From assembly GCF_000346465.2 (NCBI RefSeq), contig NC_034014.1, positions 21,287,457-21,351,456 of the forward strand: a stretch of DNA of 64,000 bases, read 5' to 3'. Positions 8,180-48,534 of the stretch are shown here, one piece after another. Position numbers and translations under genes: made by a program. Within the stretch, counting starts at the first letter, position 1, and every line of letters starts with the position of its first letter. The notes beneath the pieces are model-generated. The model saw nothing but the letters and a program-made list of their open reading frames with translations. It was not told where the DNA came from and searched no databases. Source of the stretch: Prunus persica. Its lineage: Eukaryota > Streptophyta > Magnoliopsida > Rosales > Rosaceae.

Positions 8180-9495
8180 TTGCTCTCTCTCCACTCTCAA
8201 GTGGGAACAAGAAGCTCAGCTCTAAGCTAACGCCTGCCTTTGCTGCTGCTTCGATTTGGACTTTGGATATTGATTTTTTCTTTTTTCTTTCTTCCTTTTG
8301 AGTAAAATCAATCAAGATTTGATTGTCAAGTGAGTCCATGAACCAAATTGAAGTTATAAGTTCCTGACAAATATAAATATTTTTTTTATAAAAAAAAGGG
8401 AAAAACTTTTGTTTGTTTTTTTGCTTTTTCATGGGGAATTAGAAAAGAAATGGTTGGACCCAAAGGAAGAAAATAAATAAATAAATAAATAAATAAGCAG
8501 AAAAAGGGAAATTAGAAAATCTTTTTTTCTCTGTTTTTTTTTTGGGGAAAGTAAGAAATACTCTTTAGTAAATTGGTGGTTTAGGCAACACTAGTACTCA
8601 ATTTAGGGCCCACTAATTCCCAATTTGAGGTTTGGTATTTTTTTGGCAAAACAAATGTTTTGGTGTTTGCATCTTTTGGGGTGGTAAAATTGCATGATTC
8701 ACTTTTTGGTGCTGGTTACTCTTGTCATAAGTTTTTTGATGTGTTTTGTTAACCCCAAAAAAAAAGGTGAATCATAGTGGAAAATGTTCCTACCATTCTG
8801 AAAATCTATCAAAGGAAGTTAAATTAATTTTTAAAACACATCTAATTGGCATTTGGTCTGTGAGAGAAGGTGCAAATTTAGGGTTATGATATATTCGGTA
8901 AGGGAGTATTTTTGCTCATCATTTTCACCAAAAGTGTACCATCATCACCATTCTCAACACTTAACAAATATTCATAGACAAATACAAAGCAAAGAGTTAA
9001 CATAGTATGCCTATAAACATTTATCGTGTTAAAAATAGTGGTGAGAATACATTTCAAGTTAAAGTAATGGACAAAAATATTTCCATTGGGAGTATGTGCT
9101 CTTTTTCTTGGTCCATTATGTTGATAAAATCTAGTATAAATATTCACATTTATAATTGAGTTGGGTCAAGACCCAATCAGAAAACATCAAGTTTGGTTGG
9201 AGCCTGAAAAGGCAATCCAAGATGGAAAGAACCAGGTTCCAAGTTGTCATGTTGAATGGACTATGCAACTATGCAACCCATTATAAAGTGATTCATTTAT
9301 GTTATGGGCTTGTTGGCGGGCTTGAAATTATTAATGATGTTATATACACCCAAAAGCATGATCACACCACACCCAGTAGATGGTGGTCTAAAACCCTCCT
9401 AATCTCTGAATATACATGACCCCTTCAGAAAAGGAAACCACACAGTTTTGAGTGGGAGACTTGCACAGATATTGACCATCCCAAATTGTAAAGAA
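8180..9495. other. Intergenic: GT47 upstream region and a MITE copy
   Basis: This separates the GT47 start from the 3' end of the methyltransferase gene, both on the minus strand. It holds an (AAAT)n microsatellite near 8470-8496 and the MITE listed separately. No coding region is supported; the apparent ORFs at 8001-8432 and 9156-9419 lack ATG-supported, domain-bearing translations. Confidence 0.6.
8905..9085. repeat. Short fold-back MITE, copy 1
   Basis: The segment begins TTTTTGCTCATCATTTTCACC and ends with AGTAATGGACAAAAATATTT. Its two halves are imperfect inverted complements (ATCATCACCATTCTCAACACTT against TGGTGAGAATAC). A clearly related copy with the same ends sits at 51743-51937, so this is a dispersed family rather than chance complementarity. 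Confidence 0.55.
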
Positions 9496-11992
9496 TCACA
9501 TTAAAGATTTATGGTTTTTAGGCTGTAACACATACAAGAAAATCCCACCTGCAACTGAAACATTGAGTGACTCAAACTCTCCTGCCATTGGAATGCTTAC
9601 AAGCTCACATAGCCGTCGAGATTTCTCAGACAGCCCACTTCCTTCACTGCCCAAAACCAAGCTCAGCGGCACATCTGCAAAAGAATCTGCAAGCTTTTGA
9701 GAAAGGTGAGACACTGGTTTCAGTTTTTCATCGGTCCCCGGATGGCCAGCTAGCATCTTTATTTGGAATTCATTTTTCAGGGATTCGAGATGATTCCAGG
9801 TACCAGAAACAATACGGAGCTGAAACGAGGCTCCTCGGCTAGCTCTAAGTGCCTTCTCATTGAATGGATCACAGCATCCAGGAAGAAGAAAAGCACCATT
9901 CTGTTGAATATTAGACATCTTTTAAAACATAAATTAAGAAAAATTGATCAAAGTACACAAGAAAGTGCAATAGATGCATCTTAAGATAGCATCAGAAAAA
10001 GGGAACACCAAGGAGTACGTATGATTCATCCTTGCTCCAGCTGTTTATTCAATGGATCTAGTTAAAATATGACGTCGGATTAAGATAACAGGCACATAAG
10101 CATATAGATATGAGAGGTTCGGAAAAGCAAGAACATAGCATCTCAAAATAAAAGAAGAAATAACAACTTTTAAAAATTAAAAAAAAAAAAACCAATAAAT
10201 AAACAGGAAAGAAGAGAGAATGAAATCAAATGCCTTACCCATCCAAAAGCCATAGCTGATCTGAGCAGCGTACCAAGGTTACCCGGATCCTGCAGTGAAT
10301 GATTTTTTATTGATCACTGATACAATTGCCCATAAAGTTAATGAAATCAAATGCCTGAAATTACAACCAGTAGATTAAACAGCATCTCAGAACTAAGACA
10401 TCACATTTACTTTTTCTTTTAAAGAAAAAATCAAGCAGCACGGGAAAACAAAATTTACCACAGTCTCAGCAATTAATATATAAAGTACAGAGATGAGAGA
10501 AACTTAAAATGAAATTCATTCTTCCGTGCAACAATTAGATCGAAGAGATATAGTTTGCTGCAAAAATACAAGCGCATATTTTATTTATGATAGAAAAATA
10601 TATCAAGTGATTGAGTTGCAGAAATTGTGACAAGAAAAAAGCTGTATCAGCAGAATGGCCATTACCAAATGCTTGGATAAAGCCGAATACAAATGAGGCG
10701 CTGGGCTTTAATTTGTAGAACAAGAACATAAAGAAACCACAGAATATGCCAAACCAATCAGGGAACTTCCACCCAAAGACCAAACAATTACAGCCCAATA
10801 TTTAACTTTTAGATGACAAGTACAAGTTTTCAGAGAAAAACGATGCTGAATTTTTTTCGAAATTTCATTTTTGGGCACAGGGAAAACTTTCGCAAAATGC
10901 CATTGTTTTCTGACAGTTGCTTCAACACTAGGAAAGCTTCACATGGCAGAAGACTAATCAGTATCCACACAGCCAAGAGGCGCATGATGCCATCTTTAAA
11001 ATCAAAGGTGCAAGATTACAATACTTGAAAATTTGACAGGACCTAATGTTAGGTCAGTGAAAGACTCACCTGGACGCCATCAAGGACTAGAACTCGATGG
11101 AGTGAGGGAAACCATGTCTTACAGTTTACCTCCTTTTCTTCAGAATCTATATCTGAAAAACTGGTAGGCATTCTCATTAGGGCAATTGCTTCAATAGATT
11201 CAGTTGATTGCATCCCCGAAAGTTTTTTCATCACAACAGAGCTCACTTCCACAATACGAACAGAGAAACCATCAATCCACTCAGGGACCTCAGCTTTTTC
11301 AAGTAGAAGCAAGCAATCTATTATAACAGTTTTCTCTTGCGATGACCTTTGGAACCTGTATATTTCCCTGAAAATGAAAACTTCATCATACATATTACCA
11401 GGTTTTATTATGTTTAGGAAAAACAAAATCAAAATCAAATGCAAGGAACACAGTTAGACGGCAATACAGTAGCAGTAACACAAAAAAAGGACAGAAGTTT
11501 AGAACATTAAAATTAAACCTTCCCTCCAGTTCCATATGCAATGAATAAAGATTTCAACATTGGAATTTTATCTTTTTCATCTTTCTCCAATTTCTCAGCA
11601 ATCAAACAGGACAAGAAAAATAGCATATACCCATCTGAGTTTTGTGCAAGTAAACTGATTATTGCAAAGAACCCACATAGATTCAAGTGGAAAAGAGAAG
11701 GATAAAGATGAAACCTGATAGGCGTAGCACCCACAACGAGAGCTGAACCATGACTGTGGCGATAAGATGAACTCTGTCGAAGCTTGTGGCAGTGTTTCAC
11801 GAATGGGTTAGAGGTGCTTGTTATGGAATTGACATGGGAAGGCAGAGGAAGCTTTACATCATAGTCTTCAAAGTTGCTCTGCCTCTGGGTATGGATTTGG
11901 CTTGGACCAACTGATAACTCTGAGTGCAAGTCCCAAACTTTGCGCTTTCTGGGGTCAATGGTTGACGCTGAGATGATGTTAGAGCATTGCAT
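9496..11992 (-). CDS. SpoU/TrmH (SPOUT) family tRNA/rRNA 2'-O-methyltransferase
   Basis: Four exons: 11715-11992, 11070-11367, 10239-10289, 9496-9900. They give 343 residues with all phases closing. Residues about 60-190 form the N-terminal substrate-binding part ([13 protein letters not shown], then ATPIREIYRF across the first junction). The 51-nt exon 3 encodes motif 1 in full, [17 protein letters not shown] (193-209). Motif 2 is [10 protein letters not shown] (290-299) and motif 3 spans about 311-326 (SIPMAG then SLNVSVA), which together make the trefoil-knot S-adenosylmethionine site. The family methylates ribose 2'-OH groups of tRNA or rRNA. Target RNA and compartment are unknown; the N-terminus could be an organelle presequence but is not diagnostic. 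A stop lies in frame upstream of the chosen ATG, supporting the start. Confidence 0.93.
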
Positions 11993-16993: not shown

Positions 16994-18284
16994 CTATATC
17001 CTCTGAGAGGTCGGTAAAGTCAGTGATGCTCCTTGACTGGGAAATTCATCCATCGAAACCATCGAGTTTTGAGGGAACATCCTCTGAGGTGCACCCGGAA
17101 TATATAATCTCTCGGATGTTGGTGACATACCAGGATTTCTCTGAACCAATGGAGACATATACAATCTTTCCGAGGTGGAAGGAACAGCATCGGCATGTTG
17201 AGAGGCCACAGCCAAGTCGTCATTCCTTTGAGATGCTGTGGACATGTATATCCTCTCCGAAGTTGGATGTAGAGTAATATCAGTTCTCTGAGATGTTGAA
17301 CCCATGTGGTCATGCCGATGAGATGTTTCAGGCATGTAAAGCCTCTCAGATGTTGAAAACATGGTGGTGTCATTGCTTTGAAATGTTTGGCCCATACTGT
17401 CATTCAGCTGAGATCCTGCCAGCATGTATACCCTCTCCGAAGCTGGATGTAGTGTTGTATCCATTCTTTGAGATGTTGCACTTATCCCGTCATTTCTGTG
17501 TGATATCGGAACCATGTTGTCATGAGACGCAGGCACATATACCCTCCCAGAAGTCAATGCCATAGAAGTATCAGTCCTTTGAGATGTCAGTGCCTTGTTG
17601 CCATTCCTCTGAGATGTAGGCACATGATTCCTTTCAGAACTTGGAATATTTTGAGTCCTTTGAGATGCTGGTATTGAGGTTTCCATCCAATGAGAAGTTT
17701 GAGGCATATTCTCAGTCCTTCTAGGTGTTAGTATTGACGCTTCCATCCAACGAGATGTTTGAGGCATATACATCCTCTCTGAACTCTGGGTCGGTCTCAT
17801 TGACACACCTTGACTTGGTATATCTCTTTCTGGTTCTGGATGCGTAGCTAGTGAGATCTCTGCACTGGATAGATCTCTCTCAGATGTTGCTGGCCTGACA
17901 AGGGGCACTCCTTGACTAGACAAATTCCTATAAGCAGTTGGAGACACGGATAAGACTCCTGGGTTCGGTAGATCTGCCTCAGACGTGGGAGTGATGGACA
18001 GTGGAGCTCCATGACTTGGTGAATCACTCTCAGATTCTGGGTGCATGTCTGGTGACACTCTTTGGCTAGGTGAATCTCTCTCAGATGTTGAAGGCAAAGC
18101 TGAAGACACGCCTCTACCGGTCAGATCTGTCTCAGATGATGGAGGCAGAGGTAGCGACACTTCTAAGCTAGGTAAATCCTTCCACTGCTGCGCAACCGTC
18201 TTGATCTGGGTGTAAAATTGCACACCTGCCTTACCTGCAAGTTTGAATGGTAACTGCAGTTATGGAAAAGGTTCAACCATCCTC

Positions 18285-18363
<79 letters not shown>

Positions 18364-19229
18364 ATACCACAAAAATTGAGATCGCTACCAAAAGATGCCT
18401 TAGATCCATCAAATGAAGAAAATGGCAATGGAATTGGAACAGGGACATTGATTCCAACCTGAGATATGTCAAATCCGTGTCAGTTAGTAACATGCAAGTC
18501 ACACCATAAATTAGAAAATGTCTACGAGATGAGAGCATTCTCTAATTGCAGTGAAGATTCCATGAAATTACTAAAAGAAACATATTTATTCAACCAGCAT
18601 ACTTTCAGTTCAAACTTCTTATCCCCCTCCTGGAGCCAACATGGTTCCCTATACTTCTATTAATATGTATGAAAACACCAAATGTATGCTGGCATAAAAA
18701 ATTGTAACATCTAGCCCACAGAGAACTATAGGAGGGACGTCATAAAGCATCACCCCATAAGTTCTCATAACCTACATGATAGAAGGAGTTGGCTTACCAG
18801 CCCTGCCTCAACTTCATTCTGGAACTTCCTTGCAGCAATGCCGGATGTTGTGAATATGGAAGCTCCATTACCATACCTAAGGAATCGTAAGACAAGATAT
18901 AAAACTGATAATTGTAAGTGCCTATATTTTAAACGAAATGCCTGTTTCAAGAAGTTGCAATTGATGCCAGAATTTTTAGGGAAAAAAAAATTGAAAACAT
19001 TATATTAAAACAAGAAGGAACTATGTTTCTCATAAGTTGCATCCATAAACAAATAATGAGAGTCTTCATTTCACGACTTTAATGGATCTTGGAAACAAAA
19101 GAAAGCAGGAGAGCGAGTACCTGTTTCTGTTTATAATTGATATGGCCTCTTCTAGGCTGGCAGCCTGTTGGTCATCAAAAACAGAAAGTTTCGTAACCAA
19201 TCTACAACTCGTAGCAAACTCTCACACAA

Positions 19230-19312
<83 letters not shown>

Positions 19313-22218
19313 CCTGCATGCAAAGAAGAACTGGTCCAAAAATTTCTTCCTGCCCAACACAAGATACAATGCTGTCAAGAATATGCCAATCTCTTTGGTT
19401 TCAACTCTTCTTCCACTGAGAATCATAATTAACCAAGTCCATTTATTCCGAAGACATAAAAGAACTGGGAACATGAAAAGATTACCTTAAAGCAATCCAT
19501 GTTGGTTGTAACATCACATAAGATTGTAGGACCTATAAAATTTCCATTCTCATATCCTGGAACCTACAAAGTCGTGTTTGAAAAATTCAGAGAATGTTTC
19601 TAGAAAGCAATCTCCTTAGTTATACACATGCTCAGCATGTGACATATAGAACACTACATGCTCCTCCATTGTTACCAAGAGATCGGTGATAAAATGATAC
19701 TTTATCAGCAAAAGATAATATAAGATGCATATTAACAGGAAAGAATATAAGAATATGGAAAGAAAGCAGAAAACTGCTAACGGAGAAGCCATGCTACAAA
19801 AAGGGAAGGAAAGTAGTCCGTAAAGTACATCAACAATCAGCAATGTTGTCACTAAAACATAGAGTGCATGAAACCAACTTCTGTAAATGTATAGAAACTC
19901 AAGGTGAAAATTCACACAGTTTTCCTTTTTTTCATCCTTAGATGATTGCATGCATATTTTGAAGAACTTTCAAGATACAGCAAAACTATGCATGAATCAT
20001 GATTTGCTCATAAAATGGAACAAATTAATGTATTTTATCGCCAGCACCTTAAAAAACAAAAATATATATTCCTATATTTCTCTTAATTTGATCTGTAAAA
20101 TTATTAAAAGCCACCACGGGGGTGCAACCAAACTACACAAGCATACAAGAAATAACCACCCAAAGCTAAGGATTCTAAAATCAGGATAGAAGAAAATAGG
20201 CAAGGATAGAATATGCCTTCCATGGAGGTAAAAATTATCCTTCCTTGATATGGTCACTTCAAGAGAAATTACCTAAGTCATATTCCCTAAACAGTGCAGC
20301 CAAAAGAAAATTTCAAAAAACACCTCCCAGAGTTTTGGTAATATACTGAAATTAACATGTTTTTCAATTTGTGTTTATGCATGTGCACATGTGTAAAGCA
20401 TTTCTTCAAAGCAAGAATTGATTTATCTCAATACGTACCCTAACATTTCTCCCATCAAGCAGAAGTCTAGCACCACTTTCAACACTGCTCTGAACTAATC
20501 TGCAAATGCAATCCTTCACCTGTGAATTTAGAAATCTTGTGAAAAACTTAAAAAAAACTGCATTAAGCATATCATCTAAATAGGTTATACAACATGCTTC
20601 CATGAGAAATTTGAAGGATCTTTTAGTAGGAAACTTAATTTATAGATAAAAGAACATAATTACGAAAAGATAGGGACATGTGTTCCACCTATTGCAAAAA
20701 CAACAAAAGGCACAAAACAAGCAAAGTCACACTCAATACAAAACCCGAGCCCAATCAAGGTGAACTACACTAAACAGAACATCTCTAAAGTGCTTAGACA
20801 AAGGCATCAACAAAAGGAGGCCAGAAATTTAATTGTTCTCGAACAAAATTCAGTTCCTCTTCCCCATCCTAAAAAATTCTTCTATTCCTCTCCTGATACA
20901 CAACCCAAATAGAACCTAGTTCTCCATAGAGCAAAGCTTACAACTCTCTTATAAGCCCCCATCCCAAACATCCCTAAAAATTCCTCGATCAATAGAGAAT
21001 AGCAATCTCTTGGAACTAGAAAGACCTGCTTCAGGCCAAAAGCTAGCTCCTTACAATACACAGAAACTAAGCTTTCCAATTAGTTCCTTTTTTATAAAGA
21101 AAAAAGGCAGACAACGCAGGAGGATTTATTCACCTCTTTTGTAATAACTGGGCCAAGGTCTGCACTGGGATCTGTTCCTACATTCACTTTAAGGGCTCTG
21201 ACATGCTCCAAAATTTCGCTTTCCCTGTAAAACATAAATAGACCACCAAGTTTAGTTGAAAACTAACTTGCTACCTATGCAAAGCACAGGCCAAATAATA
21301 GTTTTTTAAGCCAAAACAAATATTGTTAAGTTTATGACAAAATAGAAATACTTTTATAGTTCACATAATAAAAAACAGTTTAAAAAATCTAACATGTAAA
21401 ATAAAAGGAAAATTAATATCAACCCTGCACTACTGACGTTCTAAACTTGGTCAGTCTTAGTTTGGCCACTCTTTCCAATTTACACTAACCCATGAGAAGA
21501 CTTGGTAGAAACTTTAACCCTTCCCATTAATATGTTAACTACTATGGGAAGCCCAACAGGCAAACGTAGGAACCCCACAGATCACATCTCTTTTAGAACC
21601 ATAAATGGACACATGTCACTTGTTTAACAAATTTAGCCCAAATGCAACATTGGATGAGCATTAATGTAAATACAAAATAAGATCCAACTGTTAGATGTGA
21701 GCTAATATATAAATTGCAAACAGATAAAGAATGAGTAACAATAACCTCAAGTTGCAAAAGATAAACAAGAAAGTATCTCAAAATTGTAGGCAAACTCAAG
21801 AAGTTACAGACTAAAGACACAACTAAGTTGAGTGGTACATGTTCCAGTAACATTCAAACTTCGAAGAAGAATATAGGCATGTAACTCCTATTATTAGATG
21901 CAGTGAACTCAGTAGATGGGAAGATACCAAAAAGAAAAGAAAAGAATAAAACATTATCAGATCAAACAAACAAAATGAATTACCATGGCCTTGAACCTCC
22001 AACAAAAACAGCTGTATTCAGAGTCATACACCTTTGTCCTGCAGCACCAAAGCCAGCAGTAACCAGAGCATTCAAGGTAGCATCCATGCTAGCATCAGGC
22101 ATGATGATTGCATGATTTTTTCCTCCTATATTAGACTAGGGAGTTGACAGAATCACCAGTTAGAAAGCAAATTTAGTTAAAAAGTTAATGCCGATTGTGT
22201 GTGCGCTTGGGTGGGTAA

Positions 22219-22252
<34 letters not shown>

Positions 22253-25200
22253 AACTATTCACCTGAACACGTTTTCCCCTAGCAACTGCTCTCGCATATA
22301 TGTGCATCCAAGCCTTCACAGTACATGAACAAGAGAGAGTAGATATAAAAAGGAAATTAAACACGTAAGAGTAGAATGGCATATACTCTCATATATTTGA
22401 AGTCCAAAGTTAAACATATGTGCTATGACAACCTATTGAATACAAGCAAACCTATTCAATTTCCAAAGTGCAGGGAAATGTAAGATTTCAGCAGAAAAAA
22501 CTAATTACACTTACTCAGATTTATGAGCTCTACTATCAGTTTAATGATTTAATTTCATACCCATGAACTATTGATGCAGAGGCCTCCAAAAGGTTTATTA
22601 AAGCCTCTCTTGTCCACATACTGTGAAGGCAGTGAGCTTAAAGTGTTTTTAAGGGCTGGGATTAAAGGGTTATTTTCATATCAATGGCTTGGGCTGGAAT
22701 GTCTTCAATATATGTGTTTCTCATTATGAGCCTTTGAAAAAAAAAACATTTGACAGAATATATAATCAGATTAGACAATTGTTCTTGGGCCACTCTTTCC
22801 CTAGACATTCAATTATCATCGTTCCAGCAATGGTCTTAAGGCTTCCTTTCCCTAGAAACTTAGTAGAAAATTTTCTTTTCTGTTGCACCAATGATAAAAA
22901 CAGTGGATAGACTAATGGAACACTTCAGCTCACAAGGACAATCACATAAACAAATTCAATTCACAATGACTTTTGTGTTTTTCGCCATGTGAAAATGTAG
23001 CGAAGGCCGACGAGGTTATATGTGAGTGTGCTGATGTGTCGAGTGAATCTGAACTTCACGTCATATCTTCAGGCACCGGATAGACATATAAATAATCATG
23101 AACCACCAAACTGAAAGAAACTTACCGTATTTGAGCCAACAAGTGATACAGCTTTTATGTCATCATCATCACATACATAATTAATAACGTCCTGCTCAAA
23201 TTGATTTTCAAGAAAAGTAAATTTTGTCAGTGCGTAGAAAAGATTAATTAGCAACCTACCCCAGATTTCAAATTGACATTACCTAATCATTTACAGAACA
23301 GCATAAATTATTGGAAAAGACATAAGGCGCAATGGGAGTGGCCAACAGCTTGGCCACCTGTTTTAATAACATATATTAACCCCGAAAAAATAGCAATTGC
23401 CATTTGTACAACTACATATTAATATGTCTTTCATTTTTCTACTTAAAACGCAGGAGATTTCCACGACTAGAACTGTGGCAAATATGTACAAATAGATGGA
23501 GATCCTGATCAACAGAACTTACATGGGTGCCATGAACAATATTTAAGACACCATTGGGTAAACCAGCCTCCTTTGCAAGTGCTGCAAGTATCATTGAAGC
23601 CCCTTAAACAAAAACAACGTCAGCCATTTCAATTTGTCAATATGGGCACAGTAGAAGAAAAATGAAACATAAGATTGCATTTCTAGGAAGATACATAAAA
23701 AACAAAAAAAGAAGTCAACAATGATACAAGGTGTAGCATACAACAGCTTCCATATAACAAATGATCGATCTACAGAGATCATTGAGACACATTAGAATGA
23801 CATACACAAAATTTAAGAAGTGCGTCAATATTGATGATCTTTTGTGGTTTCCTTTTTGTAGGAAAGATCTAAACCTAGAACCTCACCAACCCCACACCTT
23901 AGCATTACCACCCTTCTTTTAATGTATGGCTTTCCAACTAACACTAAGGCACAACACAGCTACTATTGATTAAATGTATTCCCATATGCACATGTATGCA
24001 TTAGCATAACTTAGTTGTTTAAAATCTTAAATACATACAACTTACAAACATGAATTATATTCATTATATCACCCACAATTCCCACTCGATAACCTTTTCA
24101 CCACTTATATCGATTTAATCATTGTCTTCATATCTGGAAACTTGTTAGAAATTTGAATCTGGAAACTTCTCCAAAGATGATTCTCCATGTAAAACTCTGA
24201 TTCTTATGAAAAATCAGAAAAGTGAAGGGGGTATTATTTTTATTGGATATCACTTATCAGTGCAAGTTTTGTTCCAAACTATTGCCAGTAGATCCATGGA
24301 CAATGAATGGAATTATAGATGTTCAATGGCCTCCACATTATTGCTTAAAGCAGTACCCAAATACACGCTTTCAATTCACATACATCAGCAACATGCAATC
24401 CAAGTAGAAACAAAATGTCCCAATCTTGAACATAATAGTAACGGATTCAAAGTCACCTGGATTATTTTCACATGGCTTAAGAACAAATGTATTGCCACAT
24501 GTAACTGCAATTGGGAACATCTGCAAAACAGTGGAAAAGTTACTCACAGGAAATTCCTCTTATCTTTTTCCACAAACCACACAAATAAAAGACTCCTAAG
24601 TACCCAAAAAAAAAAAAAAACAGTTACGTGATTAACAATAGAAACTTAAATGCACAAAAAAGCTACACAATCTAAAAGTTTGTCTTCCGTAGTTTAAAGA
24701 AAGAGAAAATGCATGAGAAAATAAGCACATCAACCTAAACTAAAATAGGAAGTAAAATCATATAAAATTGTCGCCTGAGTCTTGCAGAAGGTTTTTAAAA
24801 ACAATGAAAAACAAACCACCAACAAAAAGAACTGAGAGGTAATGTAGCCATACCCACAAGGGAATCATTGCTGGAAAGTTGAAAGGGCATATCCCAGCAC
24901 AAACACCTAGTGGTTCCCTAATGCAGTATGTATCAATACCATTGGATGCATTAGGAACAAACTCCCCCATTTGTAGAGTTGCCATCCCACAAGCATGTTC
25001 AACCACCTCTAAAGGAAAAAAAAAAAAGAATAAAACCAACTCACTGTTGGTTAACACTGGTTACAGTAACAGAAATGGCAAAAAGACATGTGCAAAGACT
25101 GACCTAAGCCACGGAGCACATCATTCTCGGCACCCTTCAACGTCTTACCCTGTTCTATGGTGATATTCATTGCAAGCTTGTCCTGAAAAGAGTAGTGTTG

Positions 25201-27201
25201 TGTTGTCCACATTGAGATTCATAAGTCCAGGATAGAAATCATATATTACAATAATGAATTTATGAGACTCCAATTACTAACGATATCTCTCCGAATGAGC
25301 TCCTGGAGCTTAAACATGATACGTTGACGAGTGGTAATAGGAGTGTTTTTCCATGACGGAAAAGCCTGCTTGGCTGAACTAACTGCAGCTTTGAACTCTT
25401 CATAGGTAGTTAAAGGAACATGAGAAACAACCTCTTGTGTCGCCTAATTAAGAAATCAAACATAAATTTAATAATATAATTGATAAATGCGTCTTACGAA
25501 AAGAGAATAAGATGATAATTAATTGAATTTTGTGAGCTTACAGGATTTACTACATCAATGATTGAACACCCTTGAGAATCAACAAATTTCCCTCCAATAA
25601 AATTAGGAACCTTCAGCTACAATTGAATCTAACATAAGTTTGTAATACCCAACTCATTCAACAAAAAGCAGAGAGAGACAGAGCAGAAGTGGAAAAGCAG
25701 CCTTATTCGACCACCTTTAACATCAAACCTTACCGGTTGGTTGTTCTGTTCTGATGACCCCCCACTGGTAGTAGCACTTGTACTCACCAGAGCAGATCTG
25801 TCAGGTCTCCATGACTTGAAACTTTTTTCTGATGAAATAAGTTTAAAATATAAAGTTGTTAATGATTACTGATAAATTTTCTGATCTATTCTAGCTATTC
25901 TATCCAGAAATCCAAAAGTTTCTAGCTATTCAATCCAGCAATCCAAAAGTTAGTTTATCAAATTTTCTAGCCAAAACCTATACAATCTTTTGGCCCTAAA
26001 AGCTTGCTTTTTTCTTACACAGAAATCCCCGGGCTCCGAAACTGGGGCCCCCCTCCGAACCCTACAATCTGTTGGAGGCAGGAAACTCTGGCAAATAGCT
26101 AGATAGGTATCTTGAGGAATCGAATCTCAGACCACATGGGAGCAAACCTCTTACATGATCTTAGTGGCCACTCAAAAACTAGGGTACCATATGCACGTCT
26201 GCTAACTTTTCAAAGTCCTGCAACTTTCTTCCAATCTTTAAGTATAACTATCAGTGAACCAAATTATTAAAAACTAAAAATCAACATACTTGCGGTATCA
26301 GAAACTAATACCAATGTGGATATGACCTAAAATTTAACTTACAAAAGTATGGTGAAAGCTCCCCTTTACATGATCTTAGTGGCCTCTCAAAACTGTAATT
26401 TGGATTTCACTAGGAAAATGACTTTTCCTGTTTCCAATGAATAGCACCGTAGTATGAATATGTGCCCTTTATATTAAATATAGTTGCTCTTCAACTGCAA
26501 AGAAGTCCGCCTCAAACCCCAATACTAACTACGCATTAAGAACCTAATAAAAAGGCCACAGTAGCATGCCACTACCCACCAACACACTGTGCAATAGTAC
26601 AGATTCGGTTTTCTAGCAACTTAGAATATGAACTAAATCTTTATAAATCTTGGGAACAAGAGGAACCTGATAGATTTCCTTGACGGATCTTGGCTTTGAG
26701 GTTATACAAATGCCTTGGTGTTGACTGCAGTTCAGGATTGATTTGCTTGAGAGTCTTAAGAACTTGACGTGGTTTCACACCAGCTTCAGTCATTTGCTTG
26801 ATTTGTCTGACCTCTTCCTCAGTGAAACGACGACTATATGGATGCTCTGACATGTCCTTTAACGCATCATGGTTGTGATCCCCATTTTTTATTGCAAGTA
26901 CCCATAAATCGTCTTCCTTTTTCCCAATGGCTTCAAAAGGACAATTTATAAGGCGTGAACTTGCTTTCCTTTTGCGCTTGCTTTCATCAATTTTACGCCT
27001 ATTGCGATAAACACCTCCTCTATCACAACCAAGTATGACTCTTCTGTCTTTCCTCGACTTCTTGATGGTCACCACATATCCTTGACTAGCACCAAAATCA
27101 CGAACATATTTGATGAGATCTTCACGATCTTCAAATGCACCCGGTTGTGGAGGAAGCATCTTGTTCAGCTTTGTAACCTCAATTTGACTCTGAGCTTCCA
27201 T
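16994..27201 (-). CDS. FAR1 DNA-binding domain / ALDH6 methylmalonate-semialdehyde dehydrogenase / repetitive tail fusion
   Basis: Nineteen coding exons: 26667-27201, 25734-25828, 25542-25616, 25282-25443, 25104-25182, 24854-25008, 24457-24520, 23523-23602, 23126-23191, 22263-22313, 21984-22135, 21134-21224, 20439-20519, 19486-19563, 19314-19349, 19121-19164, 18798-18876, 18368-18458, 16994-18234. Every junction is GT-AG and in phase, giving 1084 residues. Residues 1-178 are a FAR1-type zinc-binding domain (C59, C87, H109, H111). Residues 211-691 are a full ALDH6 domain with catalytic C490 in GAAGQRCM and GPVLLCMQ downstream. Residues 692-1084 are a repetitive Ser/Thr/Pro/Arg tail. Ordinary ALDH6 is mitochondrial, about 540-610 residues, and oxidises malonate and methylmalonate semialdehydes to acyl-CoA in valine catabolism. 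Here the ALDH exons have no ATG or transit peptide of their own, so localisation may differ. Whether the enzyme is active is unknown. Confidence 0.88.
17000..18180 (-). repeat. Coding degenerate tandem repeats in the fusion-protein tail
   Basis: The last exon encodes two repeat classes. Residues about 692-830 repeat a ~17-residue unit of the form VSLxxPTSERDLPSQG (examples: [30 protein letters not shown]). After that, SER-hydrophobic-YM motifs ([56 protein letters not shown]) recur every ~19-37 residues, alternating with [12 protein letters not shown]-type segments. The protein ends [16 protein letters not shown], which again matches the unit. Low complexity and charge suggest a disordered tail. 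Confidence 0.85.
18297..18358. repeat. (GT)n(GA)n microsatellite next to a 5' splice site
   Basis: About 24 bases of GT followed by about 38 of GA on the plus strand. In the pre-mRNA of the fusion gene this is a CU tract starting about 10 nt after the donor of exon 18 (exon end 18368), followed by a CA tract. Confidence 0.9.
19232..19309. repeat. (GA)n microsatellite next to a 5' splice site
   Basis: About 39 GA dinucleotides. In the minus-strand transcript it is a long CU tract beginning within a few bases of the donor after exon 15 (exon end 19314). It generates spurious ORFs in several frames. Confidence 0.95.
22222..22252. repeat. (GA)n microsatellite next to a 5' splice site
   Basis: About 15 GA dinucleotides; in the fusion-gene transcript a CU tract starting roughly 10 nt after the donor of exon 10 (exon end 22263). 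It is the third intron of this gene with that arrangement. Confidence 0.9.
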
Positions 27202-29161: not shown

Positions 29162-29166
29162 AATTG

Positions 29167-29299
29167 TGTTATAAATCTAGAGAAATTGGAGAGGAAATTG
29201 AGAGAGAGAAGGGAATGTTTTTCTCCTCTTATTGTATGTTCATTACAAGTATGGAGAAGCCCTATTTATAGGCATTTGAGCTCCATCATATTTACAACA
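29167..29299 (-). repeat. 3' LTR (left copy)
   Basis: 133 bp, TG...CA ends, matching 34318-34450 almost completely (differences include CTAGAG/CTAAAG near the start and TTTGAGC/TTTGGGC near the end). Bounded by AATTG on the left and by a CTCCCCCTTGG polypurine-tract complement on the right. Confidence 0.93.
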
Positions 29300-29334
29300 C
29301 TCCCCCTTGGAGACCACAAATGATATAGAATATG

Positions 29335-29760
29335 CCTCGTTAAAAACCTTGCCAGTAAAAACCAAGTGGGACAAAAACTGGTCAAAGGGAAAAAGAGTAC
29401 ATAATCATGTGTAACATAAAATTCTGTGTATATTGACGCGCGTGCGACACTGCCTCGTTAAAACCTTGCCAGGAAAAACCCAGTGGGATAAAAACCTGGA
29501 CGAAGGAAAAAAGAGTACAGTGTTTGAAGATCTTTATGGATAGCGCGCTCCCCCTGATGCTTGGCAAAATATCTTTAAGTCATACTGTTGATCACCTTTC
29601 TAAATATCGTAATTGACACTGCTTCTGTGAGTCAATCTTGAGCGACACTGCCTCGTTAAAACCTTACCAGGAAAAACCCAGTGGGATAAAAACCTGGATG
29701 AAGGAAAAAGAGTACAGTGTATGGAGGTCTTTATTAAAACCACGCTCCCCCTGATGAATA
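29335..29760 (-). repeat. Three reiterated copia-type 3' blocks
   Basis: The block GCCTCGTTAAAACCTTGCC ... AACCCAGTGGGATAAAAACC ... AAAGAGTACA occurs at about 29335, 29444 and 29642. The second and third are about 198 bp apart and nearly identical, each followed by a GCTCCCCCTGATG polypurine-like complement. Read on the minus strand this is the conserved ACTCTTTTTCC...CCCACTGGGTTTTTCC...AACGAGGC segment found downstream of pol in many plant copia elements. Confidence 0.85.
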
Positions 29761-31490
29761 TCTCCCCCTGAAAACTTCATGACTAGCTTTTTCCAGTAAG
29801 CGACCATAGAGATTTCCAGAGTCCGCATATCTAATAACACTTGGGCTATTTGTAAGTTCACTCAAAAATATGCCCGTATATGGTGTTATGCTAAGATAGC
29901 ATCAAATATGCCTCACATCATCCTAAAATGATGGTGATGGAGTTGAGCTCTATCTGAAAAATACGATATACGGTCCAATATACTTCCGGAAAATCCTTAA
30001 AGTGTCCAACGGATAATCCTCATAAAAATGTTTCAATACTTTCTTAGTATAAGCAAGAATCTTGTTGGCATAATGCTCGATTTTTAAGTCGAGACAAATA
30101 TTAATGTGTTGCAATTACATTATAATCAATGTACTCACTGAGGTAATTTATGCATATTAATATTGAGTACAAATTTTGTGCTTCAAGCACATGTCCTTTA
30201 GGGACTTGCTTTATGCAATGTCAATCCTCTCAACGGATTTTGTTTAAAAAGGGATTAAATTTTATGACACATTATACATCTTTAGGAAATCGCTTCTGGC
30301 GATATGCTCCGTGCATTTAATAACCCTTAAAGATAATATGTTGGTCTCCGTAATTGTGTAATAAGGGGGGCACAATTGAATCTGTAAATATGGAGAAAAC
30401 CCAACATTCCTTGTTTCTGCCAGAAACAGTGTGTCATACAAAGTAGGTATATTCCCTTTTATTCCGAACACCCAAGTATAAATTTCAGTATTAACAAATT
30501 TTGGGGTTCGTATTGTGGGTTTGTTTTTTCACGTTCATTCTCATCTATAATGGAATTACCTCATTCCATTTTGGCCAATGATATTGTCGACATTTAATAA
30601 CTGAACGTGATTCCAATCAACACAGCCCATTGATGATTTGAGTAGCTACTCCAAAACCAAAAATTGTCATTCATCAATTCATGATCCCACTATTCTCATT
30701 TGCATGCGCATGCATCAATTATAAGCATTTCTTTGCTTTTGGGTACCCAAGCCACTTCATGGGGCTTTTATTATGTGAGAATGTGGATTATAACCTCCAA
30801 TGGAGCGTTATTTTACAGTAGGGCGTGGATAATCTCTATTTAGAGAGTTGGAACATTTAGAACCCATATATCTGTCATGCTGCAGGCATGCCACAGATTA
30901 ATACATACATGTCAATTAATTTCTGGGACCTTAACCCATATTATGGGACTTTAACCCATATAATTTGCTACGCATTAGGCGTGCATAATATCAATATTGA
31001 CATGTCAAAGGATTGTCCTTTCGGGACTTCAATCCACATCATTTGCTACGCAACAGGCGTGCATCATATTGATCACTGCTATACCCATATTCTGTTCTTA
31101 TGGGACTTTAATCTGTGCAGTGTATTATCAATGTATCCAACTTGCAATCTGTAAAATTTGCATTAATAATTCATGGATACATACAAGCCATTCTTTTGGA
31201 ACAGACTTATCTCCCCATTTGGTTACCTTTCAAGATAAAATATCAAATAAGTATATAAGCATAAAATAACACAAGTATTGCTTACATCCTTAGGTGGGAG
31301 AAACTTTTCTTAAGTATCATTCAAGCTCGTATCGGCCTAGTAAATATAATGTAGCGCTTGATGATCTAGTTTTATCCTGCAAGAGCAAAAATCACAACTC
31401 TTTTCTCTGTCAAAAACAAATAATCCTCAGAGAGTTACAAAAAGAGAAAAAATGCAAAAATAATGTGATATTGATTGCAAGAGAAGGTAA

Positions 31491-31574
31491 GCAATCAAGG
31501 AAGGAAGCTGGTGGGAGCAGACAACAAGCTCAGCAATCAAGGAAGGAAGCTGGTGGGAGCAAACAATAAGCTCT
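31491..31574. repeat. 42-bp tandem duplication
   Basis: GCAATCAAGGAAGGAAGCTG starts at 31491 and again at 31533; the two 42-bp units differ at a few bases. It lies inside the LTR element with no coding role seen. Confidence 0.9.
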
Positions 31575-32195
31575 CATTTCTTCCAGTCTAGAAGAACTTC
31601 CGGAGATTAGAGCATAAGGTTGCCTTCACAGTTCCCTGATGTGGTGGAAACGTGATCAGGGATAGTCTCGCTTCCTGAATGGATGATCAGAGATAGTCTT
31701 GCTTCTCGGGCATGTTAAGTGCTCACTGATAAGAAAAACAAGTAGATATCGCATCACTAGGTATGGAGAAAACTGGATGTCTTCTGCAAAGAAAATTTCG
31801 TTAGTAACACATTTATACACAAATACAATGAATAGGTAGAACCGGTGAATTTCAAATTAACCATAGGAAAAATTGCGAGATTCTCGGGATACTTTTGAAA
31901 AAGCAGCTCCGTGAAATTCGTAAAGCAAGATCAGCTTTGACGAAAATAATACTTTGAAAGTGCCGAAAGTGCCAACAAACATTAATGGAGGCCACGTGAA
32001 GTTTTGGACTCTGGGAAAGAAAAAAAGAATATGGGATCCGAAAAGATATTGGGATTCTGAAAAAACTGTAGCCATATTTCCTCCTATAGATATTGCCTTT
32101 GCAAAACTTGATTGGAGCAACTGCGTTTCAACTTAACTTCCTTCATTTTCTGAAACTTTAGTTTTCTTAAGGCTTTCTTCGAAACCTTCTTAAAA

Positions 32196-32747
32196 ATGGC
32201 TTCCTCTTCTTCCTGCCCAAATTATTTCAATTTAAATGATACTTCCACAACAACCAGTGATGCCCAAGTTTGGCGTCCATCCTTTGTATCCCAAAATCGT
32301 CATCTCACAGTTAATGATTCTGTGATGATGAATGATGCTACTGCTGTCATAGTAGCTAGGAATTTCATTACTCCAATGGATGAAATGTTGTTGACAGGGA
32401 GATCAGAGGAAGAGGCTATTGATGACTCAATGGCTTTTAGCATTCAGAGTGTTGTTTCTGTTTCTAACATGGCTGATCGTTTGCGTGCCAGAGCAAACGA
32501 GGTTGAGAGGTTAGCTACTGAAAATTCGTCTCTCCAAAGAATACTTCATGAGTCTCAACAGGAGGTTGAGAAACTTAAAGGAGAGAATAATGCCTTGTTG
32601 AAACTGGTGAGTTCATACTCTGTTGATACACTGAGAAGGCTAGACATGCTGCAGGTCTCCAATGAAAGAATTTTGGGAGACCATGAGAGGCTCATGGCTA
32701 AGCTTAAGAGGCGTCGTCCTCTTCCTTCAGAGGCTTCCGGAACATAA
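32196..32747 (+). CDS. Element-borne antisense ORF, 183-residue coiled-coil protein of unknown function
   Basis: An uninterrupted ATG-to-stop ORF on the strand opposite to the retroelement's own orientation. The N-terminus MASSSSCPNYFNLND is Ser-rich. The middle (about 65-100) is mixed with many Met. Residues about 95-170 have heptad-like Leu/Val spacing (ANEVERLATENSSL, QQEVEKLKGENNALL, LRRLDMLQ), so a coiled coil is likely; the C-terminus is basic (KLKRRRPLP). I recall similar hypothetical proteins scattered in Rosaceae repeats but cannot name a family. No gag, nucleocapsid, protease or transposase motif is visible. It could be a captured host gene or an accessory ORF. Confidence 0.6.
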   Translation: MASSSSCPNYFNLNDTSTTTSDAQVWRPSFVSQNRHLTVNDSVMMNDATAVIVARNFITPMDEMLLTGRSEEEAIDDSMAFSIQSVVSVSNMADRLRARANEVERLATENSSLQRILHESQQEVEKLKGENNALLKLVSSYSVDTLRRLDMLQVSNERILGDHERLMAKLKRRRPLPSEASGT

Positions 32748-33267
32748 TGTATTTTTATAGATTTTACAGGGCCTGCACCTTCATTGCAGGAAAAATCTAT
32801 CTGTTGTATGTTCCTGTTATAATAATTGCGCACATTCTTAAACTTGCACCTGTGGTTTTTACGTCTTTTCAAAATGACGATTTGGAACCTTGTGTATAGG
32901 TTCAAATAACCACATCGTCTCTCCCAAATTTCATATTTCAACGTATGGAACTTTTGGCCTGTGCTAAACACAAACTCAGAATTTATTTGCCCTTTTCAAA
33001 TGAACATGAAATATGGATTGAGTAAAAGCCATGATAATATCACAATATAGTAGTGAAGAGCATTAACTACTATATACCCACAACCTCAAGTTCGGGATTT
33101 CTCATATATTTGAATCCATGTGCTTCCGGCCCAGATATAAAAAAATATGTGGGGAGCCTCAATTCATCATTCTCTTATGACAAAGAAATATGTGGCGTGC
33201 CACAATTTGCAATAATACCTCAAGGGTTGTCCATTTAATTGTTGGAACTTCAGGTTCTCAACACTGT

Positions 33268-33380
33268 TAGATTTTGAACCTCAAGCCAAAATCACATGTT
33301 CTCATGGTATGGACATTCAATCCCCTTAGATTTTGAACTTCGGGCCAAAATCACATATTCTCATGGTATGGACATTTTTA
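33268..33380. repeat. 59-bp tandem duplication
   Basis: TAGATTTTGAACCTCAAGCC at 33268 recurs as TAGATTTTGAACTTCGGGCC at 33327, each followed by AAAATCACATNTTCTCATGG. The copies are diverged and non-coding, within the LTR element. Confidence 0.85.
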
Positions 33381-33858
33381 CAATTTTCTGTACATATTTC
33401 TGGACTTCAAGCCCTTACATAATTGTCCATATCTTGAGGAACTTCTGGCATCTCATTTAATTGCTCATCCATGAGTTTAAGGAATTGCAGGTTCCTTTTT
33501 GAATGGTGATAGTTTACCCAAAATGGTAAATATTTATGTATATGTCACTATTCATATATCCGGTACTATTCATCAAGTCATGAATACGTATCTATTCATG
33601 TGTACAGTACATTTGCCAGTACAGTTATCATCCATGTGTACGGCATTATGAACCAATACGGTACTGTTACATCATTAAGGAACCCCAGGTCCTTATTTAC
33701 ATGTCAGGGATCAAGGACCCTCAAGTCCAATCACATGTATACAAATATAGTACCGGAGAGACTGCCAGCTCTCATATTAACATCATCATCAAGGATCTTC
33801 AAGTCCTGATGTAATTGTATGATGAGGATCAAGGAACTTCTGGTCCTGATCTGCATAC

Positions 33859-34011
33859 ACGAGCAGAAGAGGGCTTTCCAGCAGAGAAAGCAGAGGGCTT
33901 GGCCTCAACCATTTCATCATCTTCGTCCACATCAGACTCGTCCTTGAATTCCTGGAAATCAGCCTCGAAGTCGTGGTCTAAGTCAATGATTTCGGGCCTG
34001 AGAGGCTTCGA
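33859..34011 (-). pseudogene. Fragment resembling group VII ERF (RAP2.12/RAP2.3-like) N-terminal region
   Basis: Minus-strand reading gives 51 open codons, SKPLRPEIIDLDHDFEADFQ then EFKDESDVDEDDEMVEAKPS then AFSAGKPSSAR. This acidic segment matches what I know of plant ERF-VII proteins between the N-degron start (MCGGAI) and the AP2 domain. Neither the N-degron nor the AP2 domain is present, and flanking codons drift into non-ERF sequence, so it is a captured fragment. It lies about 300 bp inside the right (5') LTR, in the orientation of the element's own transcription, so it would be in the genomic RNA. Confidence 0.75.
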
Positions 34012-34317
34012 GAAGGAAGATCTATGTGAGCAATGTTGGGGCGGACTTGGAACCCCGGAAGCTGCTGATGTTATTTTCTAGGTTTGGAGAAATTGAGGAA
34101 GGGCCACTAGGGCTTGATAAGATGACTGCGAGGCTTTCTCAGTAAACACTGTGAATGGGTCTGAATAGGGATATTGATTGCTTGCTTGTTTTATTGTGAT
34201 CTACATGCTCTAAAACAAAGCAGAGGTCGGTTGTTAAGGTTTGAGGCTTGGCAGAGAAAGAGAGAGAGAGAGCGTTTAGGCTCTGAATTTGGAGATAGAG
34301 AAATCGTGCTGATAACG

Positions 34318-34450
34318 TGTTATAAATCTAAAGAAATTGGAGAGGAAATTGAGAGAGAGAAGGGAATGTTTTTCTCCTCTTATTGTATGTTCATTACAAG
34401 TATGGAGAAGCCCTATTTATAGGCATTTGGGCTCCATCATATTTACAACA
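34318..34450 (-). repeat. 5' LTR (right copy)
   Basis: 133 bp partner of 29167-29299. On its left is GTGCTGATAACG, whose complement CGTTATCAGCAC is the primer-binding-like site directly after the LTR. On its right is the AATTG target duplication. Confidence 0.93.
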
Positions 34451-38800: not shown

Positions 38801-38869
38801 ACAGGAGGCTCCACTAAAAGGTCTTTTAAATTTGATCGAGTGTACACACCGAAAGATGATCAAGGTATC

Positions 38870-38900
<31 letters not shown>

Positions 38901-47202: not shown

Positions 47203-48534
47203 CTAGGGCAAAGCATTATATTGCTGCAAATCATGGCTACTCCACGCTTGAATTCCATGTTGCCAGTTGCTTGTGTTTTCATTGCCACCGCCGCCACCGT
47301 TTCCACCTCCGCTGTTGGTTGGAGTCGGAGTCACTGGCGGCGCATAAGAATTCCCAAAGAACCACTCCGTCGCTGTATCTCCGCTCGCACTTGCACCTTC
47401 TCTTCTTCCATGAGTGCCAACAACTTGATGTTGATGCTGATGATCAGCTTTTGATGAAACCTCCAGATTCTGAAACAAGCTTATGGGTGCAATCTGCTGC
47501 GTTTTCTGCTGCTGTTCTAGCTGAGACTGCGTTGTCTGAGTTGACTGATCATGATCATTGCCACTCCCAAACAACATGGCCAGCCTCTGCTGTTGCAATT
47601 TCCAGTGAAGGTCTTGGTTAATGGAGCTCAAGGACTCAATCGACGACGCAAGGCTACTATGAACATTCATAGAGCTCATCATATTCTGAGTAGCACTAAA
47701 CCCATCACCGCCACCGCCTCCTCCACCGCCGCCTCCGCCGCCCAAAGTGAGCGGATAATTGAAACCCAGAAAAGAATTACAAGAGGCTGATGTATCAAGA
47801 GGAGTGCTTATAGTCAATCCAGAAGTACCCGAAACGTCTCCAAAAGCCGAAAACTGGTTGTTGTTGTTATTATAACTGATTCCAGATGAAGGGTTATGGT
47901 GGAGCCTGCTAGGCAAAGATGATAGGCCGCCGAGCTGAAAATCCATGGCGGGAGAAATGCCATGGAAGAACTTCAAGCCGCCCAGCATCATATTCTCCGA
48001 GGAGGAAGAGCCGGCGGAGTCTTTCGAGTCGAGGCTGCAGGAGAGCCTGGAATTCGAGGACGACGACCGCACTCTCTTGTTCTTCCGGCAGCCTCCGCCG
48101 ATGGGGACATTGCGCAAGGCGCCGCCTTTGGTCCAGTATCTCCGGCAGGTCTTGCAGAAGTGACGTGGCTGCGTGAGGCTGTAGTTGTTGTAGTAGCAGA
48201 ATTTGGTGTTGGGCGAGTCGCATCTCGGGCACTTGAGGGCTTGCTCCGGTGGCGGATGCTGGTGCTTTGCTCCTGAGGATGATGATGACGTGGGCTTCGC
48301 CCTGCTGCTTGCGCCTCCACCTCCACCTCCTCCTGCTGCTAGGCTCTCACCGTCTTTTGTGCCGGGAGGAGGCTTCCCTGGCGGTGTGTTGTCGGAGGAC
48401 ATCATGTTTATGTTTTGCTTTGCCGCAGGAGAGGGTGCTTGAATAATCGATTGATTAGTTTTGTGGGGGTGGTGTGGTGCTTGGGTTTCCTTTTGGAGAG
48501 GCAAAGATGTAGTCAATTCATTAGTTTCATGCAT
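47203..48534 (-). CDS. Dof-type zinc finger transcription factor
   Basis: Single-exon ORF of 443 residues from the ATG at 48534. The Dof domain spans about 101-154: CPRC (C102, C105), then HFCKTC (C127, C130) with the CX2CX21CX2C spacing, followed by [20 protein letters not shown] and KNKR. This finger binds AAAG cores in DNA. The N-terminus holds Gly and Ser runs. The C-terminal half is low complexity (Gly run near 280, Gln-rich near 350, Gly/Asn-rich near 420) and ends [15 protein letters not shown]. An internal [11 protein letters not shown] at residue 44 is an alternative start with better similarity to typical Dof N-termini, so the first 43 residues are less certain. Subfamily and targets cannot be fixed from sequence. 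Confidence 0.95.

What the first reader, a model, noticed from the sequence alone, without database searches (positions are those of the whole stretch)
16994..27201. Gene fusing a FAR1 DNA-binding domain to a complete metabolic enzyme (ALDH6)
Seen: a FAR1-type zinc domain exon (26667-27201) ends in a phase-1 donor and continues in frame through a 95-nt linker exon into 17 exons of a full methylmalonate-semialdehyde dehydrogenase with catalytic C490. The ALDH exons have no start codon or mitochondrial presequence of their own, which argues against two separate genes. Known: FAR1 domains act in nuclear transcription factors and MULE transposases, while ALDH6 is a mitochondrial, CoA-dependent valine-catabolism enzyme. 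Inference: a transposase-derived DNA-binding domain was joined to a duplicated ALDH6, possibly giving a nuclear metabolite-sensing or moonlighting protein. I cannot tell whether this arrangement has been described.
Basis: partly seen in the sequence, partly recalled or inferred. Interest (0 to 1): 0.87.

Follow-up and report, generated by a model that had tools for sequence, protein, structure and literature searches.

The report
Transposase DNA-binding exon fused to ALDH6
In this plant genome a zinc-binding exon related to a jumping-gene enzyme stands in place of the first exon of a mitochondrial enzyme gene; the resulting two-part protein is found in many other flowering plants, and because the enzyme's active site has decayed in many of them it probably now works as a gene regulator rather than as the enzyme it is named after.

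Summary

It is no local oddity. Of 120 relatives listed (602 found), 87 have all three parts; some lie on ~3.5-kb contigs too short for introns, so presumably transcripts. The same genome (a Prunus, probably peach) holds a shorter FAR1-ALDH6 gene 19.5 kb upstream of an ordinary ALDH6. Comparison shows the origin: the FAR1 exon stands where ordinary ALDH6 has its 25-nt start exon, at the same phase-1 intron; the "linker exon" is the remainder of the mitochondrial presequence. The nearest non-fused FAR1 relative in this genome is a MULE transposase.

In dereplicated rows zinc ligands are invariant (70/70 long, 54/54 short), while the catalytic Cys is missing in 21/70 long and the active-site Asn replaced in 39/54 short forms. 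Published predictors place poplar and melon long ALDH6 proteins in the nucleus.

Best reading: a nuclear DNA-binding regulator on an ALDH6 scaffold, often non-catalytic. Function untested. No paper found describes the fusion.

The parts
26667..27201 (-). exon 1: FAR1/AFT-type (WRKY-GCM1) zinc domain plus following helices, aa 1-178; ligands C59, C87, H109, H111; basic cluster RNRRK...KRKRK (aa 66-79)
   Evidence: nearest non-fused relative in this genome a MULE transposase, 52%
26667..26667 (-). last base of exon 1, phase-1 donor CAG|gttcct; reading through it ends after 8 more codons (GSSCSQDL stop)
   Evidence: sequence
25734..25828 (-). exon 2 (95 nt, 'linker'): decayed second half of the ALDH6 mitochondrial presequence
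   Evidence: same intron phase and alignable peptide to exon 2 of the canonical gene (98 nt) and of the short fusion (95 nt):
18368..25616 (-). exons 3-18: ALDH6 catalytic fold, aa 210-672; exons 4-18 have the same lengths and phases as in the canonical and short genes
21984..22135 (-). exon 11, holds catalytic Cys490 (AGQRCM)
24854..25008 (-). exon 6, holds oxyanion-hole Asn359 (CPFNFP)
23126..23191 (-). exon 9, start of the GxxxxG motif (GSNTA); second Gly is Trp439, encoded in exon 10
16994..18234 (-). exon 19: ALDH end (aa 673-690) and 394-aa Ser/Thr/Pro-rich tail with repeated SERxYM and TSQR words, ending LTLPTSQRI stop
   Evidence: found in 87 of 120 listed relatives, but poorly conserved in sequence (mean pairwise identity 0.41)

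Best explanation
One gene encodes a DNA-binding protein made by exon replacement. Step 1 (shown by gene anatomy): a copy of ALDH6 has, in place of its 25-nt first exon (start codon and front of the mitochondrial presequence), an exon encoding the DNA-binding end of a MULE transposase, spliced in at the same phase-1 intron. Step 2 (inferred): losing the presequence front and gaining a basic zinc domain moved the protein from mitochondrion to nucleus. Step 3 (shown): the fusion exists in two old families, a short one beside ordinary ALDH6 and a long one with an added Ser/Thr/Pro-rich tail, both across core eudicots. Step 4 (inferred): the zinc domain binds DNA; the ALDH6 fold, an oligomer in its relatives (recalled), brings several zinc domains together and may still hold a nucleotide, CoA or aldehyde ligand; the tail acts as an effector region. 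Catalysis is dispensable, since catalytic residues were lost repeatedly while the zinc domain was kept.
For: Gene model: 19 exons, all in frame. Relatives: 87 of 120 listed proteins have FAR1, ALDH and tail; at least 8 of the listed 'lgn' rows (P0002, P0012, P0013, P0022, P0042, P0053, P0088, P0101) code 1030-1084 aa on contigs whose longest is 3282-3890 nt, too short for 18 introns. Exon swap: canonical exon 1 of 25 nt, short fusion 550 nt, long fusion 535 nt, all ending in phase 1; exons 4-18 identical in length and phase in the three genes. Source: a FAR1 relative at 52% over aa 44-177 on contig C7 lies in a frame with a MULE transposase domain. Constraint: in 70 long rows FAR1 mean pairwise identity 0.870 against 0.756 for ALDH, FAR1 higher in 2413 of 2415 pairs; zinc ligands 70/70 and 54/54; Cys490 not Cys in 21/70 long (18 replaced, 3 gaps) and 5/54 short; Asn359 not Asn in 39/54 short; at least 13 changes at the Cys site on a 97-row tree. 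Controls: 8 of 8 canonical rows keep Cys and Asn, 80 of 80 bacterial MMSDH keep Cys, Asn, Lys and Glu. The nucleotide-site Lys382 is kept in 69/70 and 53/54, and in 21 of 21 Cys-less long rows. Location: PtALDH6B5 (713 aa) and PtALDH6B7 (958 aa) predicted nuclear, PtALDH6B3/6B4 (542 aa) mitochondrial (PMC4409362 Table 1); CmALDH6B1 (1043 aa) nuclear, CmALDH6B2 (537 aa) mitochondrial (PMC11510909).
Against: No experiment on DNA binding, location or activity was found. Most relatives keep a full set: 49/70 long rows keep Cys490, 46/70 keep both Cys and Asn, and peach keeps both; ALDH is under purifying constraint in peach (dN/dS about 0.15 long-canonical), so activity in some species is possible. 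Retention of a nucleotide site is not uniform: the first Gly of GxxxxG is Ser or other in 15 and a gap in 1 of 70 long rows and non-Gly in 8 of the 21 Cys-less ones. The short set was found by FAR1 similarity and rows with many FAR1 gaps were dropped (8 for FAR1 gaps alone), which favours FAR1 conservation. The bacterial control is mostly Pseudomonas and was picked by patterns, one of them (AMIPLWMF) two residues past the Asn. The tree does not settle a single origin: long+short together support 88, and short+canonical together is not rejected (p-AU 0.506).
Confidence: 0.66

Rival explanations
1. Nuclear working enzyme: the fusion is still an active methylmalonate-semialdehyde dehydrogenase that is brought to chromatin, where it makes propionyl- or acetyl-CoA or clears aldehydes.
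For: Peach and 49/70 long rows keep Cys490; 46/70 keep Cys and Asn. The ALDH domain remains 76% identical among long forms.
Against: Cys missing in 21/70 long and Asn replaced in 39/54 short rows, with at least 13 changes at Cys on the tree; Trp at the second Gly of GxxxxG in peach.
Confidence: 0.15
2. DNA binding was lost: the FAR1-like exon only stabilises the protein or mediates protein contacts, and the protein is a cytosolic ALDH6 relative.
For: FAR1 Pfam score below cut-off; no solved relative at the default threshold.
Against: All four zinc ligands kept in 70/70 and 54/54 dereplicated rows; FAR1 the most conserved part of the protein; published nuclear predictions.
Confidence: 0.1
3. 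Competitor model: the exon-1 product, alone or fused, acts like the FRF proteins by occupying FHY3/FAR1 sites without activating; the ALDH part is a passenger. Reading through the exon-1 donor gives a FAR1-only protein 8 codons longer.
For: FRF proteins are FAR1-only and proposed competitors (passages of PMC13306707); read-through frame; 84 proteins of 106-303 aa that are FAR1-like without the full ALDH were found.
Against: The ALDH part is conserved in full in 110 of 120 listed rows, not as a passenger; the 84 rows are mostly unnamed and may be exon-1 frames of genomic contigs.
Confidence: 0.06
4. Two neighbouring genes joined by mistake in gene models.
For: Gene finders do join neighbours here: 8 listed models (P0005, P0007, P0010, P0017, P0028, P0049, P0092, P0099) join a short-type copy to a second, canonical-like ALDH6.
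Against: Same exon join, phase and linker in two paralogues in this genome and in relatives from many plants; intron-free contigs; no start codon for the ALDH exons.
Confidence: 0.03

Closest known systems
Canonical plant ALDH6B (mitochondrial MMSDH), here C8:10663070-~10656300 of the same genome
   Same: Exons 4-18 identical in length and phase; TIGR01722 match; Cys and Asn kept in peach
   Different: Canonical starts with a 25-nt presequence exon and is 538 aa; the window gene starts with a FAR1 exon and ends with a 394-aa tail
VvALDH6B7 (1031 aa), VvALDH6B5, PtALDH6B5 (713 aa), PtALDH6B7 (958 aa), CmALDH6B1 (1043 aa)
   Same: By length, tandem position (6B3/6B5) and nuclear prediction these are taken to be the long and short families; sequences were not fetched
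   Different: Published only as ALDH6 members; the word FAR1 does not occur in the main texts searched
FHY3/FAR1, FRS and FRF transcription factors
   Same: Zinc domain related to MULE transposases; FRF proteins also lack the transposase and SWIM parts (PMC13306707 passages)
   Different: None described there is joined to an enzyme; peach domain is below the PF03101 cut-off
Host-transposase fusion genes (e.g. Tc1/mariner HTH captured by F-box genes, PMC12062965 abstract start in listing; SETMAR recalled)
   Same: A transposase DNA-binding part spliced to a host domain and kept
   Different: Here the host part is a whole metabolic enzyme and the capture replaces a targeting exon; no FAR1 or dehydrogenase in that paper's main text

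Membership tests
ALDH6 / MMSDH | MMSDH profile TIGR01722 above cut-off | tested here: met
   669.5 bits, cut-off 448.5, over 476 of 477 positions
ALDH6 / MMSDH | catalytic Cys and oxyanion-hole Asn | tested here: met
   Cys490 and Asn359 in peach; not met in 24 of 70 long and 39 of 54 short relatives
ALDH6 / MMSDH | GxxxxG nucleotide motif | tested here: not met
   GSNTAW in peach, second Gly is Trp439
ALDH6 / MMSDH | mitochondrial presequence | tested here: not met
   FAR1 exon in place of the presequence exon; no other in-frame start
ALDH6 / MMSDH | enzyme activity | not testable with these tools
   needs purified protein
FAR1/FHY3 (FRS/FRF) | PF03101 above gathering score | tested here: not met
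   24.3 against 28.1 bits for the exon; AFT PF08731 25.6 against 21.6 for the exon, 21.5 in the full protein; PF03101 is precomputed for 3 of 120 listed relatives (P0100, P0101, P0107)
FAR1/FHY3 (FRS/FRF) | C-C-H-H zinc ligands | tested here: met
   C59, C87, H109, H111; 70/70 long and 54/54 short dereplicated rows
FAR1/FHY3 (FRS/FRF) | MULE and SWIM domains (FRS; absent in FRF) | tested here: not met
   Pfam scan finds only Aldedh and AFT in the full protein
FAR1/FHY3 (FRS/FRF) | sequence-specific DNA binding | not testable with these tools
   no fold search available; weak AFT2 match E 0.0046
Host-transposase fusion | domain of transposase origin | tested here: met
   nearest non-fused relative in the genome is in frame with PF10551 MULE; direction of transfer is inferred
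Host-transposase fusion | spliced in frame to host exons and transcribed | tested here: inconclusive
   splice sites and phases fit; intron-free contigs of relatives; no RNA of this species seen directly
Host-transposase fusion | kept by selection | tested here: met
   FAR1 exon long-short dN 0.228, dS 1.48; conserved across the listed relatives

The most novel reading that the evidence does not exclude
A nuclear transcription regulator of core eudicots that reads metabolism: the ALDH6 fold has become a ligand-binding sensor (NAD(H), CoA or a valine/pyrimidine-catabolic semialdehyde) that controls DNA binding by a transposase-derived zinc domain, with catalysis repeatedly and independently discarded.
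Probability: 0.3. Interest if true: 0.92.

Novelty: new variant of a known kind. Interest (0 to 1): 0.8.

Why it matters
Proteins of this family are named in public records 'methylmalonate-semialdehyde dehydrogenase, mitochondrial' (names), which by this analysis is likely wrong in place and, for many members, in function. It gives a clear case of how a transposase exon can re-route an enzyme: one exon replaced at a phase-matched intron removes the organelle address and adds a DNA-binding domain. Two old paralogues plus the unchanged parent in one genome, and repeated loss of the catalytic Cys, make the change from enzyme to regulator testable species by species.

Tried and rejected
Two separate genes: rejected on splice phase, absent start codon and relatives.

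Whole-genome duplication as the source of long and short forms: tested weakly. Window neighbours were searched in the genome; the best kinesin paralogue lies on C1 at 43.7 Mb and the best Dof paralogues on C6 and C2, none near the C8 pair. Not settled; dS values of the three genes are alike (0.85-0.89).

Range outside core eudicots: no monocot, magnoliid or early-branching eudicot name was seen among the 120 of 602 and 120 of 325 rows shown, but names are cut and the 'lgn' rows have none, so absence is not shown. Published surveys list one ALDH6 in sorghum (540 aa) and foxtail millet (581 aa) (passages).

Stand-alone donor gene: 84 proteins of 106-303 aa found, mostly unnamed; no clear stand-alone orthologue recognised.

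Literature: combined FAR1 or nuclear terms with ALDH terms; listings only, 14, 3, 1, 1, 0 and 13 papers, none whose title or abstract start describes this fusion. (ALDH6B7, 0 papers) was a poor query, since the name is printed with a species prefix. FAR1 reviews and surveys were looked at by term search of the main text: no mention of aldehyde. PMC5501352 (soybean) and PMC8440639 (potato) passages added nothing on the fusion.

Structure: exon-1 model has mean pLDDT 75.5, pTM 0.59: four strands and flanking helices, not compared with known folds. The RNA fold around the exon-1 donor showed nothing (z -0.89). The PHROGs scan gave nothing significant.
Full report
What is there. The minus strand from 27201 to 16994 carries 19 exons with GT-AG borders that read as one frame of 1084 codons. 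Exon 1 (535 nt) encodes a zinc domain; exon 2 (95 nt) a short link; exons 3-19 ALDH6, and exon 19 a further 394-aa tail rich in Ser (17.0%), Pro (10.2%) and Thr (9.4%). The ALDH part passes the MMSDH subfamily profile (669.5 bits, cut-off 448.5) and matches solved MMSDH chains (best 8xxq, E 5.7e-193). The zinc exon passes Pfam AFT (25.6, cut-off 21.6) but not FAR1 (24.3, cut-off 28.1). The window lies at C6:21287457-21351456 of a 227.5-Mb, 192-contig genome.

Is it one gene? Upstream of exon 2 the frame has a stop at 25868 and no ATG. A whole-protein search found 602 proteins, 120 listed; 87 of the 120 have FAR1, ALDH and tail, 110 have FAR1 and ALDH. Eight of the listed rows from source 'lgn' (which I recall as contigs assembled from read archives) code 1030-1084 aa on contigs of at most 3282-3890 nt; the peach gene spans 10.2 kb, so these are spliced. 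Names seen include rosids (Prunus, Pyrus, Castanea, Populus, Citrus, Gossypium, Glycine), asterids (Nyssa, Camellia, Coffea, Olea, Daucus), Liquidambar, Dillenia and Malania.

How it arose. Searching the same genome with the ALDH part found two more ALDH6 loci on C8, and with the FAR1 part one further close copy at 67%, on C8 directly upstream of one of them. Modelled in full: a short fusion of 698 aa (from C8:10692001) and a canonical gene of 538 aa (from C8:10663070), same strand, about 19.5 kb apart, the fusion upstream. Exons 4-18 have the same fifteen lengths and the same phases in all three genes. Canonical exon 1 is 25 nt (MLQLSIQR plus one base); in the fusions a FAR1 exon of 550 or 535 nt stands in its place; all three end in phase 1. 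Exon 2 (98, 95, 95 nt) reads VRNLKALRP in the canonical presequence, VRNFKSLST in the short and EKSFKSWRP in the long fusion. The nearest FAR1 relative outside the fusions (52% over aa 44-177) sits on C7 in an open frame of 612 codons, whose 544-codon listed part has a MULE transposase domain; a further copy on C4 (43%) is broken. That the transposase was the donor is inference.

How old. A search with the front of a short fusion (Ziziphus, 709 aa) gave 325 proteins, 120 listed, from rosids, asterids, Vitis, Liquidambar and Malania. In a tree of 97 ALDH domains (41 long, 42 short, 8 canonical, 6 bacterial) the long and short families are each one side of a branch (support 100 and 97); the two together have 88, while short plus canonical is not rejected (p-AU 0.506). 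A single capture followed by duplication is the simplest reading, chiefly because exon, phase and place are the same, but the tree alone does not show it. Eight listed gene models join a short-type copy to a second, canonical-like ALDH6, and poplar and grape surveys report ALDH6B3/6B5 as tandem, so the side-by-side pair looks old.

What is kept and what decays. From 235 aligned rows (232 found proteins and 3 peach models), 103 were dropped (81 near-identical, 22 for gaps, 8 of these for FAR1 gaps alone) and 7 joined models set aside, leaving 70 long, 54 short and one canonical row. FAR1 identity is 0.870 in both families, ALDH 0.756 and 0.759, tail 0.414. All four zinc ligands stand in 70/70 and 54/54. 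Position 490 is not Cys in 21/70 long rows (8 Ser, 6 Gly, 2 Phe, 1 Arg, 1 Tyr, 3 gaps) and 5/54 short rows; position 359 is not Asn in 39/54 short (27 Asp, 10 Glu, 1 His, 1 Ser) and 7/70 long rows. Before thinning the figures were 24 of 107 long without Cys and 89 of 127 short without Asn (67 Asp, 20 Glu, 1 His, 1 Ser; one more a gap). On the 97-row tree the Cys state needs at least 13 changes for 15 Cys-less rows, the Asn state 7. Controls keep both: 8 of 8 canonical, 80 of 80 bacterial (biased as stated). Lys382 of the nucleotide site stays in 69/70 and 53/54, and in 21/21 Cys-less long rows, but the GxxxxG motif erodes (first Gly kept in 54/70 long and 13/21 Cys-less rows; second Gly in 57/70). 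So loss of catalysis is well supported for part of the family, kept ligand binding only partly.

How it most likely works. Shown: one protein, exon replacement, zinc ligands kept, active site lost in many members. Inferred: nuclear entry (basic cluster RNRRK...KRKRK; published predictors put PtALDH6B5, PtALDH6B7 and CmALDH6B1 in the nucleus and their 537-542-aa sisters in mitochondria), DNA binding, oligomer-driven avidity, tail as effector, ligand control. The exon-1 model (mean pLDDT 75.5) has four strands and helices, in line with a small zinc beta domain; no fold comparison could be run, and the only sequence match to a solved DNA-binding protein, AFT2, is weak (E 0.0046) and was not repeated by a profile.

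What is known. Grape, poplar and melon surveys list long ALDH6 proteins without the word FAR1 in the searched main text. FAR1 surveys and reviews searched for 'aldehyde' have none. Paper searches for the pair of terms found nothing relevant in their listings. Subscription papers and supplements were not searched. The proteins themselves are in public databases, so what is new here is the recognition of the architecture, its origin by exon replacement and the pattern of decay.

Noticed in passing
window 29166-34450: An element with 134-nt direct repeats 99% identical (29166-29299 and 34317-34450), about 5.3 kb, about 2 kb upstream of the FAR1 exon; its 183-aa coiled-coil frame (32196-32744) has at least 150 close copies in the genome, so it looks like a recent non-autonomous LTR element.
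   Followed up: partly
window 16994-27201, relatives P0123, P0151, P0153, P0165: In several short-family proteins (hop, cotton, hibiscus) the catalytic Cys is replaced by Arg (GQKRM), on top of Asp/Glu for the active-site Asn.
   Followed up: partly
P0114 (Sesamum alatum, 707 aa): A FAR1 front joined to an ALDH that is closer to the canonical peach gene (83%) than to the short fusion (77%): gene-model error, gene conversion or a second use of the FAR1 exon.
   Followed up: no
window 9499-9918 (-), 6951-8200 (-): SpoU methylase and exostosin GT47 genes lie downstream on the same strand; a Cannabis model (P0090) joins the long fusion to a SpoU domain, suggesting conserved neighbours.
   Followed up: no
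window 36541-39260 (+) and 47206-48534 (-): A gene with malectin and kinesin motor domains, and a Dof zinc-finger gene.
   Followed up: partly
window 60587-62383 (+): Fragments of a copia-type retrotransposon (GAG-pre-integrase, Pol_BBD, SH3 domains).
   Followed up: no
window 19234-19309, 18320-18359, 22222-22251: Perfect GA repeats of 38, 20 and 15 copies inside introns of the gene, possible markers.
   Followed up: no
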